Origin: a virus
Reading direction: 5' to 3' (one strand)
IMG/VR virus record: IMGVR_UViG_3300042544_003877
Location: 1-43,280 of that record
Length of the DNA stretch: 43,280 nucleotides
Of the stretch, positions 1,774 through 34,742 are shown piece after piece. A program made the position numbers and the translations under genes. Positions within the stretch are counted from its first letter, which is position 1, and each line of letters starts with the position of its first letter. The notes under the pieces were generated by a model. It was not told the origin of the DNA, searched no databases, and saw only the letters and a program-made list of their open reading frames with translations.

Positions 1774-2607
1774 CTAGATTTTATATTTCCATATAAACCC
1801 AGCATAAGTTTCCTTATCACCTTTACAACATTTTGCAATTTGACTTCTACTCATTGTAGTATCAATCCTTTCAATCTCTCTTAAACTTTTCCATTCTTTA
1901 ACTAAATTCATATCTAAATCATATTGTAGGATCTCACTTCGTTTTATCTTAGTTCCCTTTATACTATTTCTCAATTTCTCCTTTTGTTCTTCTGTTTTAG
2001 GTTTTCGATTACCAACATTTTTAGGATTATTTAGTTTAGCCAATCTTAACTTCTCATTATGTTCGTCTGTCATTTTCAATCCATATGCCCAGTGATTTTC
2101 TTTATCCTCAAAATACTCTTTAAGAGTGTTACTTATCTTCTCTCTAACCAAAGGATCACTATTTTTATTAGGATTATTTAATTTGATTCTTTCAGAATAA
2201 TACTCCTTCAACTCTATTGATTTTTCTAAGCCAACAATTTCCTCAAGAGTCTTACCTTTTCTAGCATTTGACATTTTTTCTCTTGTGTCCAATGAAAATT
2301 CAGTAACATCACTAATATATGAATTAGTCAATTTATATCCTTCATTTGTCAACTTTTCTATATAATACCTTTCTCTTATATTAGATTGTTCTAAACTATT
2401 ACACTCTTCGACCACTTCAATAATTGGAAATAAATTATTATTGACTACTTTTCTTACCCATGAGGATTTATGTGTATTGTATGAACTTGAATTTTTATTC
2501 AATGATGACGAAATATGATCGTTATATCTTCTTTTAATATTATCAGTTTGTCCAATATACCTTATTTGATTAGTTGTTGGGTCAATAAGTTGGTAAATAT
2601 ATCTCAT
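1774..2607 (-). CDS. GIY-YIG homing endonuclease with NUMOD domains
   Basis: This 277-residue protein carries an N-terminal GIY-YIG nuclease domain: YIYQLIDP (3-10, the GIY strand equivalent), then RYIGQTDNIKRRYNDH (16-31) with the Y-I-G and the catalytic Arg. A conserved Glu is likely in the IRERYYIEKL helix. About residues 105-220 contain repeated S-N-A-R-K-G-K / L-R-x-A-K-L-N-N-P-type motifs typical of NUMOD3 DNA-binding modules. The end (ILQYDLDMNLVKEWKSL ... GFIWKY) is a NUMOD1 domain. Such proteins are free-standing mobile genes in T4-like phages (Seg type). It lies between conserved genes and not inside an intron, so it is a free-standing homing endonuclease. Confidence 0.9.
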   Translation of the reverse strand: MRYIYQLIDPTTNQIRYIGQTDNIKRRYNDHISSSLNKNSSSYNTHKSSWVRKVVNNNLFPIIEVVEECNSLEQSNIRERYYIEKLTNEGYKLTNSYISDVTEFSLDTREKMSNARKGKTLEEIVGLEKSIELKEYYSERIKLNNPNKNSDPLVREKISNTLKEYFEDKENHWAYGLKMTDEHNEKLRLAKLNNPKNVGNRKPKTEEQKEKLRNSIKGTKIKRSEILQYDLDMNLVKEWKSLREIERIDTTMSRSQIAKCCKGDKETYAGFIWKYKI

Positions 2608-2822: not shown

Positions 2823-4700
2823 ATGAACAAAAGAGATATAATAGTGGGAATTGATCTTGGTACAACTACAAGTTGCATTGCCATCATAGAAAATGGTGAA
2901 CCAGTTATAATACCAAATTCAGAAGGAAAAAGAACAACTCCTTCAGTTGTGGCATTCACAGAAACAGAAAGAAAAGTAGGAGATTCTGCTAAAAGACAAG
3001 CTGTTGTGAATCCAACAAATACAATTTATTCAATTAAAAGATTCATAGGGAAAGACTTTACTAACTGTATATCAGAGATTGATAGAGTTCCCTATAAAGT
3101 AGAATCTACTGGAAATAATGTACCTGGAGTAGTTATTGGTGACAGAAAATACACACCTCAAGAAATATCAGCAATGATACTTCAAAAAATGAAAAAAACT
3201 GCAGAAGACTATTTAGGATTTGAAGTAACAAGAGCTGTTATCACAGTACCTGCTTATTTCGGTGACGCAGAAAGAAACGCAACAATTGAAGCAGGTGAGA
3301 TTGCAGGACTTAAAGTTGAAAGAATCATCAATGAACCAACTGCAGCAGCTCTTGCATATGGATTAGATAAAAAATCTCAAGATGCTAAAATATTAGTACT
3401 AGATACAGGAGGAGGTACTACGGATATTTCAATTCTTGAAATTGGTGATGGTGTTTTTGAAGTTAAATCTACTGATGGTGATGTACACCTTGGTGGAGAT
3501 GATTTCGATAACGCAATTATAGATTGGATGGTTGACGAATTCAAATCAGAACATTCAATGGATCTAACAAAAGATCCAATGTCATATCAGAGATTAAAGG
3601 ATTCTGCAGAAAAGGCAAAAATAGAATTATCATCTTCTACCGATACAGAAATAAACCTTCCTTATATAACTGCAAAAGATGGAATTCCACTACACTTTGT
3701 TAAAAAATTGAACAGAAGCAAGTTCAATCAATTAACAGATTCTTTGGTAAAGAGAACAATGGTTTGTGCTTGGAATGCCTTGAAAAAATCTAAATTGAAA
3801 AAAGAAGATATTGATGAAATAATCTTGGTTGGAGGTACTAGTAGAATTCCAGCAATTCAAGAAACAGTTGAAAGAGAATTCGGGAAAACACCAAACAAAT
3901 CAGTTAATCCAGATGAAGTTGTTGCTCTTGGCGCGGCAATACAAGGAGGAGTTCTTACAAAAGATATAACAGACGTACTTCTACTTGATGTTACTCCACT
4001 ATCTTTAGGAATAGAAACGATGGGAGGAGTATTTACAAAATTGATCGAATCAAATACAACCATTCCTACAAAAAGATCGGAAACTTTTAGTACGAGTTCA
4101 GATAACCAACCTTCTGTTGAACTTCATGTTCTTCAAGGTGAGAGATCAATGGCAAAAGATAATAGAACTTTGGGTAAATTTAATCTAGATGGTATAATGC
4201 CCGCACCAAGAGGAATACCACAAATATCCGTAACTTTTGACATAGATTCAAATGGCATACTTTCAGTTTCTGCTAAAGACAACGCTACGGGTAAACAAAA
4301 CTCGATAAGAGTTGAAGGTGGATCTCAACTTTCCAAAGAAGAGATTGAAAGGATGAGATCAGAGGCCGAGGCAAATGCTGAATCTGATCGTGTTGAACGA
4401 GAAAGAATTGATAAGTTGAATGCTGCTGATTCAATGATTTTCCAGACTGAAAAACAGATTAAAGAGTTCTCAGAAAAACTTGAAGAATCTGATAAGAGTG
4501 AATTAGAAAGTTCTTTGAATGAATTAAAAGAATCACACAAATCTGGAGATGTGGATAGAATTGATGTATCAATGGCAAAGATGAATGAAACTTGGAACAG
4601 AGTTTCAACCAAAATGTATTCAAACATGAATGATGAAAATAATACATCAGGTAGTAGTGAGCCAGAATCACAGGATGTTGAATTTGAAGAAGTCAAGTAA
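2823..4700 (+). CDS. dnaK: Hsp70 chaperone DnaK
   Basis: A full-length 625-residue Hsp70 (bacterial DnaK is about 600-640). The ATPase domain shows phosphate-1 motif GIDLGTTTS (about 9-17), [15 protein letters not shown], phosphate-2 [14 protein letters not shown] and the adenosine motif [11 protein letters not shown]. The interdomain linker [15 protein letters not shown] is near 384-398. A complete substrate-binding domain ([18 protein letters not shown]) and helical lid follow. The C-terminus ends VEFEEVK, like bacterial DnaK tails. It is monocistronic, flanked by a divergent regulatory region and its own hairpin terminator. It probably aids folding of virion or replication proteins, or remodels host proteins. 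A phage-encoded complete DnaK is rare. No DnaJ or GrpE gene is visible here, so it presumably uses host co-chaperones. Confidence 0.97.
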
Positions 4701-19545: not shown

Positions 19546-20493
19546 TCACTTTTTATTCAATTTAATTTTTTTGACTTTTCCCCTTTTCAGTTTCCAAATT
19601 CTATCTGGTCCTTTTTTTGAGTGTTCAAATCCTTCTTCCCACCATTTATTCATAAGTTCAGAATCAAAAATATATGGATTATTTGTTATCTTTTTTGGAA
19701 GAAAATAAACTTCAAGTATAACCTCCGTTCCTTTCTCAACTGATTTTGAAAGACTCATTAGATCAATATCATCTTTCTTACCTCTTATAAAAAACATTTT
19801 TATCATTTTTGATATTAAATGTAGAACATTTCTTACTTTCTCAATTCTAATTTTCTCGTTTTCTTCCATAAGTACTATGACATCAATATGAGTAGATCCA
19901 GACTCAATAGCCTCAATTATTGGAACAAATCTTAAAATACCACCATCCGCATACTCAAATCCATTTTTTTCCATTAAACTCATAAATGGAGTAGCTGATG
20001 CTGACGCAACTATCCAATCAATAAAATCAGAATATGTCTCTTCTTTAGATTTCTTTATCTCAAGAGTCTCTGTGCTTAAATTACACACAGTAACACATAT
20101 ATTTTTATCCAATTGTTTTATAATTCTATAATCCGATTCAGATAGAAACTTTCCTACTGTTTTTTTAAGATTTGATGAATCTCCTAAAGTTCTTGTTCCA
20201 TTTTTTATGAAGTTTTTGATAATGTTAAAATGATCTAGTTTGAATTTAAAATCACCTCCTATTTTTCTTTGTATTTTAAATGGATTATAAAGAAATATAT
20301 CATCTGGTGAAATTTTTGTATATGCTTCTTTCAATCTGGATATCTCATCTATTGATATAAGCGGTATCATTAAGCTTCCGGTTGATGTTCCAAAATATCC
20401 ATCCCATCTTATGCCTGAACTATGCAAGTTTTCTACTATTCCTCCTGCCCAGGATCCCATAGAACCACCACCACTTATACAAAGAGACCTCAT
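19546..20493 (-). CDS. Patatin-like phospholipase
   Basis: The 315-residue protein begins MRSLCISGGGSMGSWAGGIV, the Gly-rich oxyanion loop. The nucleophile elbow GTSTG (residues 35-39, Ser37) and the D-G-G dyad motif (EYADGGILRF, Asp183) complete the Ser-Asp catalytic dyad of patatins. These enzymes hydrolyse membrane lipids as phospholipase A. In a phage it could help disrupt membranes at lysis or entry, or counter host defence; patatin effectors also exist in anti-phage systems. It ends with a basic tail (WKLKRGKVKKIKLNKK). It is monocistronic, divergent from clpP with 58 bp between the starts. Confidence 0.9.
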   Translation of the reverse strand: MRSLCISGGGSMGSWAGGIVENLHSSGIRWDGYFGTSTGSLMIPLISIDEISRLKEAYTKISPDDIFLYNPFKIQRKIGGDFKFKLDHFNIIKNFIKNGTRTLGDSSNLKKTVGKFLSESDYRIIKQLDKNICVTVCNLSTETLEIKKSKEETYSDFIDWIVASASATPFMSLMEKNGFEYADGGILRFVPIIEAIESGSTHIDVIVLMEENEKIRIEKVRNVLHLISKMIKMFFIRGKKDDIDLMSLSKSVEKGTEVILEVYFLPKKITNNPYIFDSELMNKWWEEGFEHSKKGPDRIWKLKRGKVKKIKLNKK

Positions 20494-21215: not shown

Positions 21216-21833
21216 ATGCAATTATTCATACCAGATATAGGAACCTTAGTAAAATTAGAACAAGATTGGCAATTCACACTTTATGATGAGTATAAAAATA
21301 TTTCATTATTTCAAAAATTAAATAAAAAAAGAGAAAATCAAATAATAGAATTGCCAAAAGATCTTGTTCTTAAAATAGATAGAATCTATATAAAAAAAGG
21401 ATTATCACAATTCAGTTCTATTACATTCAGAATACCAAAACCAAAAAATAAAAGAGAAGAAGAGGAAATGCCACTAAATAAAATTTATTCAGGAGTTATG
21501 TTCTGGGTTAAATTACATGAAATAAATGGTACTGAATTTTCAATGGTCTTGAAAAACGAAGAAACTAAAAAATTTTTTGAAAAATTTTACTTTGAGATGG
21601 AAAGAGATGTCATCGAAAAGTTCGGTCTTCAGAAATGTACCAAATTGATGGCTCAAATAAACTTTTTATTGGGATCTGGTGTGAATATAAATAACCTTTC
21701 AACACATGAAAACTATGACCAATTTCTAGATAAATTATTGAAAAGAATCAAAGAAAATGATTTTATGTCAGAGTATATTCACACATCAATAAAAAAAGAA
21801 ATAAGAGATTATAAAATATCAAAATTAATATGA
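21216..21833 (+). CDS. Unknown T4-type phage protein in the clpP-methyltransferase operon
   Basis: In this 205-residue protein the N-terminal half is beta-rich (PDIGTLVKLEQDWQFTLYDE, LKIDRIYIKKG, SSITFRIPKP). The C-terminal half is helical (FFEKFYFEMERDVIEKFG, DFMSEYIHTSIKKEIRDY). The VLKIDRIYIxKG-SSITFRI pattern is one I associate with conserved T4-like phage proteins of unknown function, without being able to name it. It begins 7 bases after clpP and overlaps the methyltransferase start by ATGA, so the three are co-translated. Confidence 0.75.
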   Translation: MQLFIPDIGTLVKLEQDWQFTLYDEYKNISLFQKLNKKRENQIIELPKDLVLKIDRIYIKKGLSQFSSITFRIPKPKNKREEEEMPLNKIYSGVMFWVKLHEINGTEFSMVLKNEETKKFFEKFYFEMERDVIEKFGLQKCTKLMAQINFLLGSGVNINNLSTHENYDQFLDKLLKRIKENDFMSEYIHTSIKKEIRDYKISKLI

Positions 21834-22570
21834 ATATTAATAAAATCTATAATGAAGATAATAAAATTACCATGTCAAAAATGCAGGATAAATTCTTATC
21901 TGGTATTATTTGCTCACCACCTTATAATTTAACAACCAAAAGAAAAGATTGTTATTACAATAATGGATATCAAGATAAAGATAATCTATCAGAAGAAGAA
22001 TATATTAAAACTAGATTACTAGAATTCAAAGAATTTGAAAGAATTTTAAAAGATGATGGTGTTATTTGTTACAATATTTCATATCATAATGAAAATCCAA
22101 TTCTACCAACATTACTCATATCAGAAATTCATAAAGAAACTGGACTTACAGTTGCTGATATAATAACTTGGAAAAAGCGATCCGCTATTCCATTTCAAAC
22201 CTCTTCCACAAAATTATCCAGAATATGCGAATTAGTATATGTGATAGTTAAAAAAGAAAGATTGCATGATTTTAAGACAAATAAAAAAGTATCTAAAATA
22301 AACGAAAAAACAAATCAGAAATTCTATAAGAACTATACAAATTTTATTGAAGCAGAAAATAATGATAAAATAAAATCTAAACTAAAAGCTGCATATTCAG
22401 AAGACCTCGTTTATAAATTATTTAATATCTACTTTCCAATAGATTCTTTGATATATGATCCATTTTCTGGATTAGGAACAACTGCACGAGCTTGTAAAAA
22501 ATCTGGAAGAGATTTCATTGGATCCGAAATAGATGAGGAACTTTGGAAAATATCAAACTCACTTCTTTAA
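21830..22570 (+). CDS. DNA methyltransferase, beta-type (SPPY, probably N4-cytosine)
   Basis: In this 246-residue protein the catalytic motif IV is SPPY (residues 29-32, IICSPPYNLTT). It precedes the AdoMet-binding motif I, DPFSGLGTTARACKKSGRDF (about 217-236), the order of beta-class enzymes. S-P-P-Y is typical of N4-cytosine enzymes, whereas N6-adenine enzymes usually have D/N-P-P-Y. No restriction endonuclease lies beside it, so it probably protects phage DNA from host restriction. Overlaps the preceding gene by ATGA. Confidence 0.9.
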   Translation: MNINKIYNEDNKITMSKMQDKFLSGIICSPPYNLTTKRKDCYYNNGYQDKDNLSEEEYIKTRLLEFKEFERILKDDGVICYNISYHNENPILPTLLISEIHKETGLTVADIITWKKRSAIPFQTSSTKLSRICELVYVIVKKERLHDFKTNKKVSKINEKTNQKFYKNYTNFIEAENNDKIKSKLKAAYSEDLVYKLFNIYFPIDSLIYDPFSGLGTTARACKKSGRDFIGSEIDEELWKISNSLL

Positions 22571-23176: not shown

Positions 23177-24688
23177 ATGAAGTTTAGATATGATGCTAAA
23201 AATGAAGAACTTGTAATATCAGAATCAACAAGGATTGAATATAATCAATTAAAGATATGGCTTACTAGAAAAGTAAAAGGATATCGATATATGCAACCAT
23301 TCAAAATGGGAATATGGAGTGGTGATCAATCATATTTTAGAGACGGTAAAATAAATCTTGGACTTTGGAGAGAATGTTTCATGGGATGCAAAGAAATAGA
23401 AGTCCCCTTTATTATACAAAATAAAGAAGATTTTCCTATAAATAGAGATGTTACTTTAGAAAGTGTTAAAGATTTCTGCGATAGTTTTTTTTCAGAACAC
23501 AAGATAAAAGATAAAGATGGGAATTGGATTCATTTTAACCCATATGATCATCAAATAGAATCAGCTTATAAGATACTTAAAAATAGATTCTGCATGGCAG
23601 AAGTTGCTACATCCGGGGGAAAATCATTGATTATATCAATAGTTATTTTCTATACGTTGAAAAACATCGATCCTGATGCAAAATTTTTACTTATCGTGCC
23701 TTCAATAAATCTGGTAACACAGTTCTATGAAAATATTTTTGAATATAATTTTGGATTTAACTTCTTAGATAAAATGGATTTAAAAGATCTAACAGAAACA
23801 GTTAGAGATAAAAAGATAGAATCTATTATTGAAGGAAGTAACTATGACCCTTGTTTTCTCAAAATTGAAGAGATCATGTCCGATCGTCCGAGAAAATATT
23901 CTGATAAAGAAGAGCCAAATATTTATATTGGAACTTATCAATCGCTTGAAAAATATCCTAAAGAATTTTTTAAACAATTTCATACAGTTGCTTGTGATGA
24001 AGCACATGGTGCAAAATCTAAAACTATCTTATCTATACTTAAAAAAACTTTTGGATATGCTTATTCGAGATTCGGAGTATCTGGTACTTTTCCACCAGAT
24101 GATTCTTGCGAAATACTTACAGTACAATCAGTACTAGGTCCTAAAATAACCGAGGTTACAGCAAATCAACTAAAAGAAAAGGGAATAATAACTCCTATGG
24201 AAATAAAAGCAATAATAATGAATCATAATGATTCGGATTATGAAGAAAGATTATTATACATAAGAAAATCTGGATTAGGTAAAGAAGCATTAGAACTTGA
24301 AAAAGATTTCATACATAATTCAGATAAAAGAATTGATGTCATAAAAAAATTAATAGATAAATGTGATAAAAACACACTACTATTATTTCACTCTATAGAA
24401 TATGGGCAAAAAATATTAAATAAACTTCAAAATGAAATAACCGATAAAGAGTTCTATTATATTGATGGTGGAGTTAAAAATAAAAAAAGAGAAGAAATAA
24501 AGAAAATATTAGAGGAAATAAATGAGAAAATAGAATATACAATTTTGAATTTTGGTGATTATGAAATTGAATTTGAATCAAATTTTGATATACTATTAAG
24601 TAATGGCAATTGGAAACCTTCAAAAGATATAACACCAGAAGATGATATAGATGATAAATTCATAGAGAAATTTAAAAAACAAAAATAA
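23177..24688 (+). CDS. uvsW: UvsW-like superfamily 2 DNA helicase, N-terminal part (interrupted)
   Basis: In 503 residues there is an N-terminal UvsW-type domain (about 1-110), then FNPYDHQIESAY (Q-like motif), Walker A VATSGGKS, VPSINLVTQF (Ia), CDEAHGAKS (DEAH, motif II) and GVSGTFPP (III). The second RecA domain starts with KNTLLLFHSIEYGQKIL and YYIDGGVKNKKREEIKK. The frame then leaves homology: from about residue 455 it reads NFGDYEIEFESNFDILLSNG and onward to TAA. The motif IV-VI end of the helicase lies downstream at 24753-25031 in another frame. UvsW unwinds branched DNA and R-loops in T4 replication and repair. Either the gene is broken or its halves are joined by splicing or recoding. 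Confidence 0.85.
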   Translation: MKFRYDAKNEELVISESTRIEYNQLKIWLTRKVKGYRYMQPFKMGIWSGDQSYFRDGKINLGLWRECFMGCKEIEVPFIIQNKEDFPINRDVTLESVKDFCDSFFSEHKIKDKDGNWIHFNPYDHQIESAYKILKNRFCMAEVATSGGKSLIISIVIFYTLKNIDPDAKFLLIVPSINLVTQFYENIFEYNFGFNFLDKMDLKDLTETVRDKKIESIIEGSNYDPCFLKIEEIMSDRPRKYSDKEEPNIYIGTYQSLEKYPKEFFKQFHTVACDEAHGAKSKTILSILKKTFGYAYSRFGVSGTFPPDDSCEILTVQSVLGPKITEVTANQLKEKGIITPMEIKAIIMNHNDSDYEERLLYIRKSGLGKEALELEKDFIHNSDKRIDVIKKLIDKCDKNTLLLFHSIEYGQKILNKLQNEITDKEFYYIDGGVKNKKREEIKKILEEINEKIEYTILNFGDYEIEFESNFDILLSNGNWKPSKDITPEDDIDDKFIEKFKKQK

Positions 24689-24767
24689 TTTATGGCTAAA
24701 ATTATAGACAAAAGAAAAGAAATTAGAGAAAGGAAGGCGACTAAAGTTTTAGTCGCCTCCTACTGAG
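24689..24767 (+). other. Interruption zone between the helicase halves
   Basis: After the TAA at 24686-24688 the same frame continues, via ATG at 24692, as MAKIIDKRKEIRERKATK and then V-L-V-A-S-Y, meeting TGA at 24764. V-L-V-A-S-Y is the expected UvsW sequence just before G-T-L-S-T-G, which resumes at 24771 in the +1 frame. So genuine helicase coding lies on both sides of a short insertion (TGAG plus a duplicated TAC). GC-rich codons (GTC GCC TCC) are unusual for this genome. Confidence 0.6.
24736..24757 (+). other. Perfect stem-loop just before the TAC-TGAG-TAC junction
   Basis: GGCGACTAAA (24736-24745) is the exact reverse complement of TTTAGTCGCC (24748-24757). It is followed three bases later by TAC-TGA-G-TAC. 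No T-run follows, so it is not a standard terminator. A hairpin next to matching codons around a stop is a hallmark of translational bypass sites such as T4 gene 60. Confidence 0.55.
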
Positions 24768-25031
24768 TACGGCACACTAAGCACAGGAATTTCAATTAAG
24801 AACCTACACTTTCTTATATTGGCAGATTCCTTTAAGTCAGAAACAATAATCATTCAATCTATTGGTCGCTTATTAAGATTGTTTGATGGGAAAGCAAAAG
24901 CAGTGATATTCGATTTAGTGGATATATTCAGCATGAAAAAAAGCAATACTCTTTATAAACATTTCTTAGAAAGAGTAAAAATGTATGAAAAAAGAAAATA
25001 TCCTTATATAGAAAAGATTATAAAGATTTAA
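24753..25031 (+). CDS. uvsW: UvsW-like helicase, C-terminal segment (out of frame)
   Basis: Open from a TAG at 24750 to the stop at 25031, with clear helicase sequence from 24768: YGTLSTGISIKNLHFLILAD (motif V region), IIQSIGRLLRLFDGKAKAVI (motif VI with its Q-x-x-G-R-x-x-R arginine fingers), and the C-terminal helix LYKHFLERVKMYEKRKYPY. There is no ATG start; the first possible initiator is TTG at 24819, inside motif V, which would give a useless fragment alone. It therefore needs joining to the upstream part to act. Confidence 0.7.
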   Translation, partial: SPPTEYGTLSTGISIKNLHFLILADSFKSETIIIQSIGRLLRLFDGKAKAVIFDLVDIFSMKKSNTLYKHFLERVKMYEKRKYPYIEKIIKI

Positions 25032-33566: not shown

Positions 33567-33916
33567 AAGAGTTAAATGATGAGAGTCTATTTGAATATCT
33601 TATGACAGCAGATTTCATAGAAAACTATAGACCAGATGAATGGAAATTTCTATTATTAAAATTCAGGTCCTTTTATAAGGTTCTAAGAGGAAATAAAGAA
33701 AGAATAGAAAATGAAAAAGATTATCAGATAAAGATTCTACAAAATCAATTAGAAAGTCTTACCATAAATTTAGAAAAACAACAAATAATTAGTTCAAATC
33801 TTCAAAATAAAATCGATTTTTCTGAGAGAAAAAGAAAACTAACTTGGAAAGAAAGGTTTAAAGGAGAAATAGAAAGATTCAGTAAAAATGATACAAATGA
33901 TACAACCACCACTTAA
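33563..33916 (+). CDS. Coiled-coil protein coupled to the AAA ATPase
   Basis: The start at 33563 (ATGA overlap with the ATPase stop) gives 117 residues beginning MKELNDESLFEYLMTADFIE. An upstream ATG at 33536 would overlap by 31 bases. The N-terminal half has a compact YRPDEWKFLLLKFRSFYKVL segment. The second half is coiled coil (YQIKILQNQLESLTINLEKQ). The tail is N/D/T-rich. It overlaps the next gene by 17-29 bases. Probable partner of the ATPase, from coupling. Confidence 0.7.
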   Translation: MKELNDESLFEYLMTADFIENYRPDEWKFLLLKFRSFYKVLRGNKERIENEKDYQIKILQNQLESLTINLEKQQIISSNLQNKIDFSERKRKLTWKERFKGEIERFSKNDTNDTTTT

Positions 33917-34742
33917 TTATACGGGAAGCAAGTTTAAGTTACTAAATCAAATTCTACCAGAATTAAACTACAAAAAAGAAAAGTTTGTTGATTTATTTGC
34001 AGGTGGTGGTTCGGTATATGCCAATGTTTTAGATAAATATGAAAAAATAATAGTAAATGATATTATAAAAGATCTAGTAAATATCCACAAAGGAATATTA
34101 GAATCAGATGAAATAATAGAACTAACTAAATTAAACTGCAAAGATTTAAAAATAAATAAAGAATTATATGATAGATTAAGAGATTCATATAATGAGACAC
34201 CTTCTGCTGATAAATTATGGGCACTTATATTGAGTTGCAATTCGAACTTAATAAGATTCAATCAAAAGGGTGAATTTAACCAAACTTGGGGAAAAAGATC
34301 TTGGAATCCAAGTACAGATAAAAAATTAGATACTTATAGATCACATATAAGAAAGTTTAAAGAAAAAATAAAATTTGAATCAAAATCATTTGAAATGATA
34401 GAAATTGATGAGAATATGATGATCTATATCGATCCTCCTTATGGATATGTAAAAGATAAATCTGGTGAAATTGGAAATAAACAAATAAGTGAAGCAGGAT
34501 ACAACAATTTCTATCACCAAAAAGATGATTTAAATTTATACCAGTTTTGTCATAAAATAAATGAAATCGGATCGAGTTTTATGATATCGGGTGTTTTAGA
34601 GCACGGTGGACAAACAACTTGGATTTTAGATAAATTAATATCTGATGGATTCAATTTTAAAGAGTTGAATTGTAACTATGAAAAAATAAATAAAAGTGGC
34701 AATGATAAAAACACTATAGAAATAATAGTTAAGAACTACTAG
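33888..34742 (+). CDS. dam: Dam-type (D12 class) N6-adenine DNA methyltransferase
   Basis: 284 residues from 33888; the ATG at 33900 (MIQPPLNYTGSKFKLL) is equally likely. Motif X/I: PLNYTGSKFKLLNQILPEL and FVDLFAGGGSVYANV (AdoMet binding). An acidic loop VNDI follows, and the catalytic motif IV is YIDPPYGY. The layout matches T4 Dam and E. coli Dam, which methylate adenine in GATC. No endonuclease partner is seen. Likely functions are protection from host restriction or marking of DNA for replication or packaging. It is the last gene of an operon with the AAA ATPase. Confidence 0.93.
   Translation: MIQMIQPPLNYTGSKFKLLNQILPELNYKKEKFVDLFAGGGSVYANVLDKYEKIIVNDIIKDLVNIHKGILESDEIIELTKLNCKDLKINKELYDRLRDSYNETPSADKLWALILSCNSNLIRFNQKGEFNQTWGKRSWNPSTDKKLDTYRSHIRKFKEKIKFESKSFEMIEIDENMMIYIDPPYGYVKDKSGEIGNKQISEAGYNNFYHQKDDLNLYQFCHKINEIGSSFMISGVLEHGGQTTWILDKLISDGFNFKELNCNYEKINKSGNDKNTIEIIVKNY

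What the first reader, a model, noticed from the sequence alone, without database searches (positions are those of the whole stretch)
23177..25031. UvsW-like helicase interrupted by an insertion with a stop-bridging hairpin junction
Motifs I-III lie in one frame and motifs V-VI (G-T-L-S-T-G, Q-S-I-G-R-L-L-R) in another. V-L-V-A-S-Y in the first frame is immediately followed by TAC-TGA-G-TAC and then G-T-L-S-T-G in the new frame. This places matching TAC codons around a stop, right after a perfect stem (24736-24757). This is the layout of the T4 gene 60 bypass site. About 200 nt of extra sequence also sits upstream, with one UAA, perhaps an intein, mobile-element or homing scar.
Basis: partly seen in the sequence, partly recalled or inferred. 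Interest (0 to 1): 0.85.

Follow-up and report, generated by a model that had tools for sequence, protein, structure and literature searches.

The report
Helicase gene split by bypass cassette
In a group of uncultivated phages, a selfish DNA cassette has cut a DNA-repair helicase gene in two, and ribosomes very probably hop over a short stop-containing gap, next to an RNA hairpin, to make the second half; this is an arrangement otherwise known in phages mainly from T4 gene 60.

Summary
At 23177-25031 a UvsW-like helicase is split: an N-part with a foreign ~55-aa tail (to TAA 24688), a 24-codon ORF (24692-24763, MAKIIDKRKEIRERKATKVLVASY), a strong hairpin abutting TAC-TGA-G-TAC, then motifs V-VI in the +1 frame.

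It is not a one-off pseudogene or a sequencing error. Ten distinct gapped alleles from different IMG/VR contigs share the arrangement; some still carry an HNH homing endonuclease between tail and ORF2. The hairpin core is paired in all ten, with compensatory changes. The spacer varies, placing the second half in frame +1 (7 alleles), +2 (2) or 0 (1). In three alleles the codon just before the resume codon is itself a stop, so +1 frameshifting cannot serve them. An eleventh allele lacks the gap and encodes ...VLVASY-GTLSTG... as one clean 111-aa ORF, exactly the predicted bypass product; its hairpin has weakened.

Best reading: an independent, mobile counterpart of T4's mobA/gene-60 cassette, with a much shorter gap (1-14 nt). 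The tail resembles the second half of a split-intein N-fragment without catalytic residues, so it is perhaps a docking piece. Bypass itself is inferred and has not been shown experimentally.

The parts
23177..24517 (+). N-part of UvsW-like SF2 helicase (motifs I-IV), native portion
   Evidence: Pfam ResIII/DEAD, PHROG DNA helicase E 1.7e-49, 57-70% identity to relatives
24518..24688 (+). Cassette: half-intein-like tail fused to the N-part (INEKIEYTILNFGDYEIEFESNFDILLS...), ends at TAA 24686-24688
   Evidence: Absent from intact relatives; nine tails align; hhalign to true N-inteins prob 83, E 9e-6; model pLDDT 86, best Foldseek match an intein, weak E
24692..24766 (+). Cassette: ORF2, 24 codons plus TGA; start of the separate C-part (MAKIIDKRKEIRERKATKVLVASY*)
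   Evidence: Conserved in ten gapped alleles and fused in frame to GTLSTG in L059
24731..24761 (+). Hairpin, core 24736-24757, 3' side reaching the take-off codon
   Evidence: Fold -19.5 kcal/mol; all core pairs kept in ten gapped alleles with compensatory changes
24761..24763 (+). Proposed take-off codon UAC (Tyr)
   Evidence: UAY, or UUC in L053, in all gapped alleles
24764..24767 (+). Bypassed spacer UGAG with stop
   Evidence: A stop follows the take-off codon in all ten gapped alleles; spacer 1-14 nt
24768..24770 (+). Proposed landing triplet UAC, not decoded
   Evidence: GAC, AAC, UAG or UAA in relatives, so it cannot always be decoded
24771..25031 (+). C-part of the helicase, motifs V-VI, resume codon GGC to stop
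   Evidence: Helicase_C match, 58-75% identity to relatives, purifying selection

Best explanation
A mobile homing-endonuclease cassette has split a phage UvsW helicase gene into two translated pieces. The N-part (helicase plus a ~55-aa half-intein-like tail) ends at TAA 24686-24688. The C-part restarts three bases later at ATG 24692. Ribosomes translate 24 codons to Tyr UAC (24761-24763), meet UGA, lose codon pairing, slide over UGAG while the hairpin refolds behind them, re-pair at or near UAC 24768-24770 and resume at GGC 24771. The product ...KVLVASY-GTLSTG... restores native motif V in a ~111-aa C-part. The halves then associate, perhaps helped by the tail. As in T4, the gap probably protects the cassette from its own endonuclease; this window has since lost the endonuclease. 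Shown by sequence: split, tail, ORF2, hairpin, conserved stop gap, mobility. Inferred: bypass, docking, immunity.
For: Ten distinct gapped alleles with the same anatomy. Gapless allele L059 encodes the exact predicted product as one ORF, with a weakened hairpin. Gap length and frame vary (+1, +2, 0) while the joined product keeps native length; three alleles have a stop right before the resume codon (L062, L035, L073). Hairpin covariation, 0/500 shuffles. ORF2 is unusually conserved at 4-fold sites (0.69 against 0.42 tail, 0.41 C-part). The C-part is under purifying selection with no stops. Intact HNH endonuclease in L008, L039, L053. No start codon between the last upstream stop and GTLSTG.
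Against: No expression data. Landing triplets often match the take-off codon at only two of three bases, whereas T4 uses matched GGA/GGA. L053 would resume at ACC, replacing native Gly by Thr. L062 has GTLGTG instead of GTLSTG. Because the cassette is mobile, part of the selection on the C-part may predate insertion. The docking and immunity roles are inferred.
Confidence: 0.73

Rival explanations
1. Programmed +1 frameshifting at UAC UGA G (prfB-like), giving VLVASY-E-Y-GTLSTG.
For: In the window and five other distinct alleles the C-part is in the +1 frame with no stop after the shift. UGA is a known +1 shift context (PMC5009743).
Against: L062 has UAG in the +1 frame; L035 and L053 are +2, and L035 also has UAA before GGU; L073 is in frame 0 behind UAG-UAA. 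It would add one or two residues inside motif V, never seen in intact genes or in gapless L059. UAC to ACU re-pairing is poor (general knowledge).
Confidence: 0.12
2. Pseudogene in every allele: the helicase is inactivated by cassettes and the C-part is untranslated.
For: Stops and frame changes; the cassette is mobile, so insertions could be recent.
Against: C-part intact in all alleles with dN/dS about 0.05-0.09 where computable; tail and ORF2 conserved as coding sequence while the endonuclease decays; compensatory hairpin changes; L059 keeps a clean two-gene form.
Confidence: 0.1
3. C-part translated from an unrecognised non-AUG start, with ORF2 as a separate leader peptide; the hairpin brings a purine-rich sequence close to it.
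For: Purine-rich GAAGAAGGGG precedes the hairpin in most alleles.
Against: No conserved start-like codon in the GTLSTG frame; the product would lack the VLVASY strand of motif V; L059 fuses the two.
Confidence: 0.04
4. Protein or RNA splicing: an active split intein or an intron joins the halves.
For: The tail is intein-like, and true split inteins interrupt this gene at another site.
Against: No Cys1 and no C-terminal His-Asn at this site; no Rfam intron; the gap is far too short for an intron; the N-part lacks VLVASY, so joining it directly to GTLSTG would delete half of motif V.
Confidence: 0.01

Closest known systems
T4 gene 39 - mobA - gene 60 homing/bypass cassette (PMC5009743, PMC2988022, PMC11194080)
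   Same: HNH endonuclease splits a DNA-metabolism gene; the C-part restarts with its own ATG; stop right after the take-off codon; RNA hairpin at or upstream of take-off; out-of-frame resumption
   Different: Helicase instead of topoisomerase; gap 1-14 nt instead of 50; one hairpin abutting the take-off codon; Tyr/Phe instead of Gly; landing triplet only partly matched; ORF2 24 codons instead of 46; half-intein tail on the N-part; found in many alleles
Fractured genes with split inteins and endonucleases (Dassa et al. 2009, from memory; cited in the intein literature found)
   Same: Gene broken by an endonuclease between two halves; intein-like sequence on the N-part; true examples at another site of this same gene
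   Different: Here the intein-like tail lacks Cys1 and there is no C-intein with His-Asn, so no splicing
Aeh1 split nrdA/mobE genes-in-pieces (PMC2988022)
   Same: Endonuclease insertion leaves two polypeptides that reassemble
   Different: No recoding there as described in the review
Magnusiomyces mitochondrial byps and Weiss 1987 synthetic stop-hops (PMC5009743)
   Same: Bypassed inserts or short hops over a stop; take-off and landing codons not always perfectly matched
   Different: Organellar and mostly context-independent, or synthetic; here one phage site with a conserved hairpin
prfB +1 frameshift (PMC5009743)
   Same: UGA in the A site at the shift
   Different: No conserved slippery CUU or SD 3 nt upstream; the frame is not constant across alleles

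Membership tests
T4 gene 60-type homing/bypass cassette | Gene split in two with a homing endonuclease between the halves | tested here: met
   Intact HNH ORF in L008, L039, L053; lost in the window
T4 gene 60-type homing/bypass cassette | C-part is a separate gene whose first ORF ends in a stop directly after the take-off codon | tested here: met
[quoted passage not shown]
   Folding and covariation
[quoted passage not shown]
   Matched in the window and L002; two of three bases in the other alleles
T4 gene 60-type homing/bypass cassette | Stimulatory nascent peptide | not testable with these tools
   ORF2 peptide is basic and conserved, but its effect needs experiment
T4 gene 60-type homing/bypass cassette | Homology to gene 60/mobA | tested here: not met
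   The host gene is a helicase; analogous arrangement, not a family member by descent
T4 gene 60-type homing/bypass cassette | Bypass product demonstrated | not testable with these tools
   Needs reporter or mass spectrometry
Split intein (trans-splicing) | Cys/Ser at N-intein position 1 and TxxH motif | tested here: not met
   Tails A1 lack both; true N-inteins A2 have them
Split intein (trans-splicing) | C-intein ending His-Asn before Cys/Ser/Thr | tested here: not met
   ORF2 sequences
prfB-type +1 frameshift | C-part always in the +1 frame and open after the shift | tested here: not met
   L035, L053, L062 and L073 violate it
Group I/II intron | Match to a known intron covariance model | tested here: not met
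   No Rfam match in the window

The most novel reading that the evidence does not exclude
A distinct class of mobile phage element that combines a frame-agnostic, hairpin-driven short ribosome hop with a splicing-dead half-intein used as a docking clamp, so that a selfish endonuclease can split an important gene and keep it working.
Probability: 0.4. Interest if true: 0.93.

Novelty: new variant of a known kind. Interest (0 to 1): 0.85.

Why it matters
T4 gene 60 has long been the main efficient natural bypass studied in bacteria and phages, so it is hard to say which of its parts are essential. A second system in another gene, with ten natural variants that change gap length, frame and landing codon plus a gapless one, would allow a direct test of what hairpin refolding, stop identity and landing-codon match each contribute. 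It would also support the view that bypass arises as self-immunity of homing endonucleases. The half-intein tails suggest a route from protein splicing to simple docking.

Tried and rejected
Rfam scan: no intron or known RNA. tRNA scan: none. UGA reassignment: not indicated, 13 of 44 main ORFs end in TGA. 'Ancient vertical cassette' argument for selection on the C-part: dropped, because cassette alleles are scattered among intact ones and tail divergence does not follow the helicase (r = -0.35). Codon models in iqtree2: no omega was printed and branch lengths were saturated, so position-wise identity and pairwise NG86 were used. Matching TAC/TAC as the key signal: rejected as not conserved. 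The hairpin is not wildly improbable from the peptide alone: ATKVLVA with window codon usage gives 9/9 pairing in 4.5% of draws, so the weight rests on covariation and on its weakening in L059. Pattern scan of bacterial and archaeal genomes for the hairpin: none. PDB sequence search with the tail: none; Foldseek E-values are weak because the tail is short. L046 ends before its C-part. One pattern search over fetched loci was badly built and matched nothing; L054-L057 were chance matches.

Full report
What is there. The window is a 43,280-base IMG/VR virus record. ORF 23177-24688 encodes a UvsW-like helicase N-part; the last 56 residues (from 24518) are not helicase. Three bases after its TAA, ORF2 (24692-24763) encodes MAKIIDKRKEIRERKATKVLVASY and ends in TGA. 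From 24771 the sequence continues GTLSTG...QSIGRLLR... to 25031 in the +1 frame, with no start codon between the last upstream stop and GTLSTG. Intact relatives read ...MEETDGKVRVLVASYGTLSTG..., with SY/SF always directly followed by G; the closest named records are uncultured phage genomes of 462-735 kb.

The same thing elsewhere. Searching viral contigs with the protein, the tail and degenerate DNA patterns gave ten distinct gapped alleles: window, L001, L002 (identical in five contigs), L008, L035, L039, L044, L053, L062 (identical in two) and L073. Every allele whose upstream part is available has the tail (L044 starts inside the endonuclease). All ten have an ATG-ORF2 ending ATK(V/I)LVAS(Y/F)-stop (VTK in L062) and an intact C-part. 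L008, L039 and L053 have an intact HNH endonuclease between tail and ORF2; L044 begins inside one; L002, L062 and L073 keep only fragments; window, L001 and L035 have none. Cassette alleles are scattered among intact ones on the helicase tree, as expected of a mobile element. In L008, L039, L047 and L053 a decayed copy of the native TLSTGVSIN sequence sits just before the endonuclease gene, so the target is duplicated around it.

The junction (take-off | gap | triplet before resume | resume). Window UAC|UGAG|UAC|GGC; L002 UAU|UGAG|UAC|GGG; L001 and L039 UAC|UGAG|GAC|GGU; L044 UAC|UGAG|AAC|GGU; L062 UAC|UGAG|UAG|GGU; L008 UAU|U|GAC|GGU; L073 UAU|UAG|UAA|GGA; L035 UAC|UGAGCCCCAGGGAG|UAA|GGU; L053 UUC|UGACAAAG|CUC|ACC. 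The second half is in frame +1 in seven, +2 in two and 0 in one. Three alleles have a stop as the triplet before the resume codon. One fixed frameshift cannot explain this; re-entry at the resume codon gives VLVASY-X-T(L/F)STG at native length in every case (X is Gly, but Thr in L053).

A natural gapless control. L059 (same contig as L047) keeps tail and ORF2, has its endonuclease broken by unrelated ORFs, and encodes the C-part as one 111-aa ORF: MARIVDKRKEIREEGTTKVLVASYGTLSTGVSIN.... This is what bypass should make in the others. Its hairpin is weaker, -8.5 kcal/mol against -16 to -27 in gapped alleles. I read this as: once the gap is gone, the hairpin is no longer needed. It is one allele, so this is suggestive.

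The hairpin. The stem has a 9-bp core, up to 15 bp in all, ends close to or in the take-off codon, and keeps all core pairs in the ten gapped alleles. Across the 11 sequences 96% of cells pair, four pairs show changes on both sides, and 0/500 shuffles reach the covariation score; related sequences can inflate that control, but sliding the partner by 1-3 columns drops pairing to 35-58%. It is built from codons rare in this 29%-GC genome (GCG 10%, GCC 4.5%, GTC 5.6%). ORF2 4-fold sites are better kept than those of the tail or the C-part (0.69 against 0.42 and 0.41), while the third base of Ser23 varies freely.

Is the C-part used? Between cassette alleles pS is 0.73 or more and pN 0.13-0.24; dN/dS, where it can be computed for pairs with a cassette allele, is about 0.05-0.09, within the range between intact genes (0.02-0.12). 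Because the cassette is mobile, part of this may predate insertion. The stronger point is differential survival: the endonuclease is lost or broken in most alleles, whereas tail, ORF2 and C-part are intact wherever they can be read.

The tail. It aligns to the second half of true N-inteins from the same gene (hhalign prob 83, single-comparison E 9e-6), is modelled with pLDDT 86 as strands plus a helix, and its best Foldseek match is the VidaL intein (TM 0.64, prob 0.90, but E 1.3). It has no Cys1, and the C-part has no His-Asn, so it should not splice. Two other contig groups split the gene elsewhere with a similar tail and a clean restart (hhalign prob 95). A docking role is inference.

Mechanism and comparison. 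In T4, an endonuclease split gene 39; the C-part, gene 60, holds a 50-nt gap after a GGA-UAG take-off, with a 5' stem-loop thought to refold behind the ribosome and move it forward, and the gap may have protected against the endonuclease (PMC5009743; PMC11194080; PMC2988022). Synthetic constructs also showed stop-hops over one stop codon (PMC5009743). The present system has the same layout in another gene, with a much shorter gap and one hairpin. With UAC in the P site the right arm of the hairpin is inside the ribosome and the left arm roughly at the exit (inference from footprint size), so refolding could pull only a short stretch of mRNA, in line with a 1-14 nt gap. I found no paper describing this element in the held library; subscription papers are mostly not covered.

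Verdict. Translation by bypass remains to be shown at the bench.

Noticed in passing
L024:4798-6028, L025:4801-6038, L032:2111-3539, L035:4373-5606: A second, independent mobile element in the same helicase gene at the DE|C site of motif II: a canonical fractured gene with a true split intein (TIGR01445 E 1e-9) around an endonuclease-like ORF.
   Followed up: partly
L028:2566-4001 (also L029), L033:2602-4001: A third split of the same gene near aa 190-228: half-intein-like tail, endonuclease-like ORF, then a clean ATG restart MKIKRISKIKI... with no stop or hairpin; possible docking-only version of a split intein.
   Followed up: partly
L008, L039, L047, L053: between tail stop and endonuclease ATG: A decayed copy of the native TLSTGVSIN target sequence is kept just upstream of the endonuclease gene; its role is unexplained.
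   Followed up: no
L059:5247-6329: Two unrelated ORFs (210 and 74 aa) sit inside the broken endonuclease, so the helicase halves are separated by other phage genes.
   Followed up: partly
L046: Tail-bearing N-part followed by an unrelated ORF; the contig ends before any C-part and no C-part lies elsewhere on it.
   Followed up: partly
window 1774-2607 (-), 2823-4700 (+), 19546-20493 (-), 21830-22570 (+), 33888-34742 (+): GIY-YIG nuclease, phage-encoded Hsp70, patatin-like phospholipase and two DNA methyltransferases.
   Followed up: no
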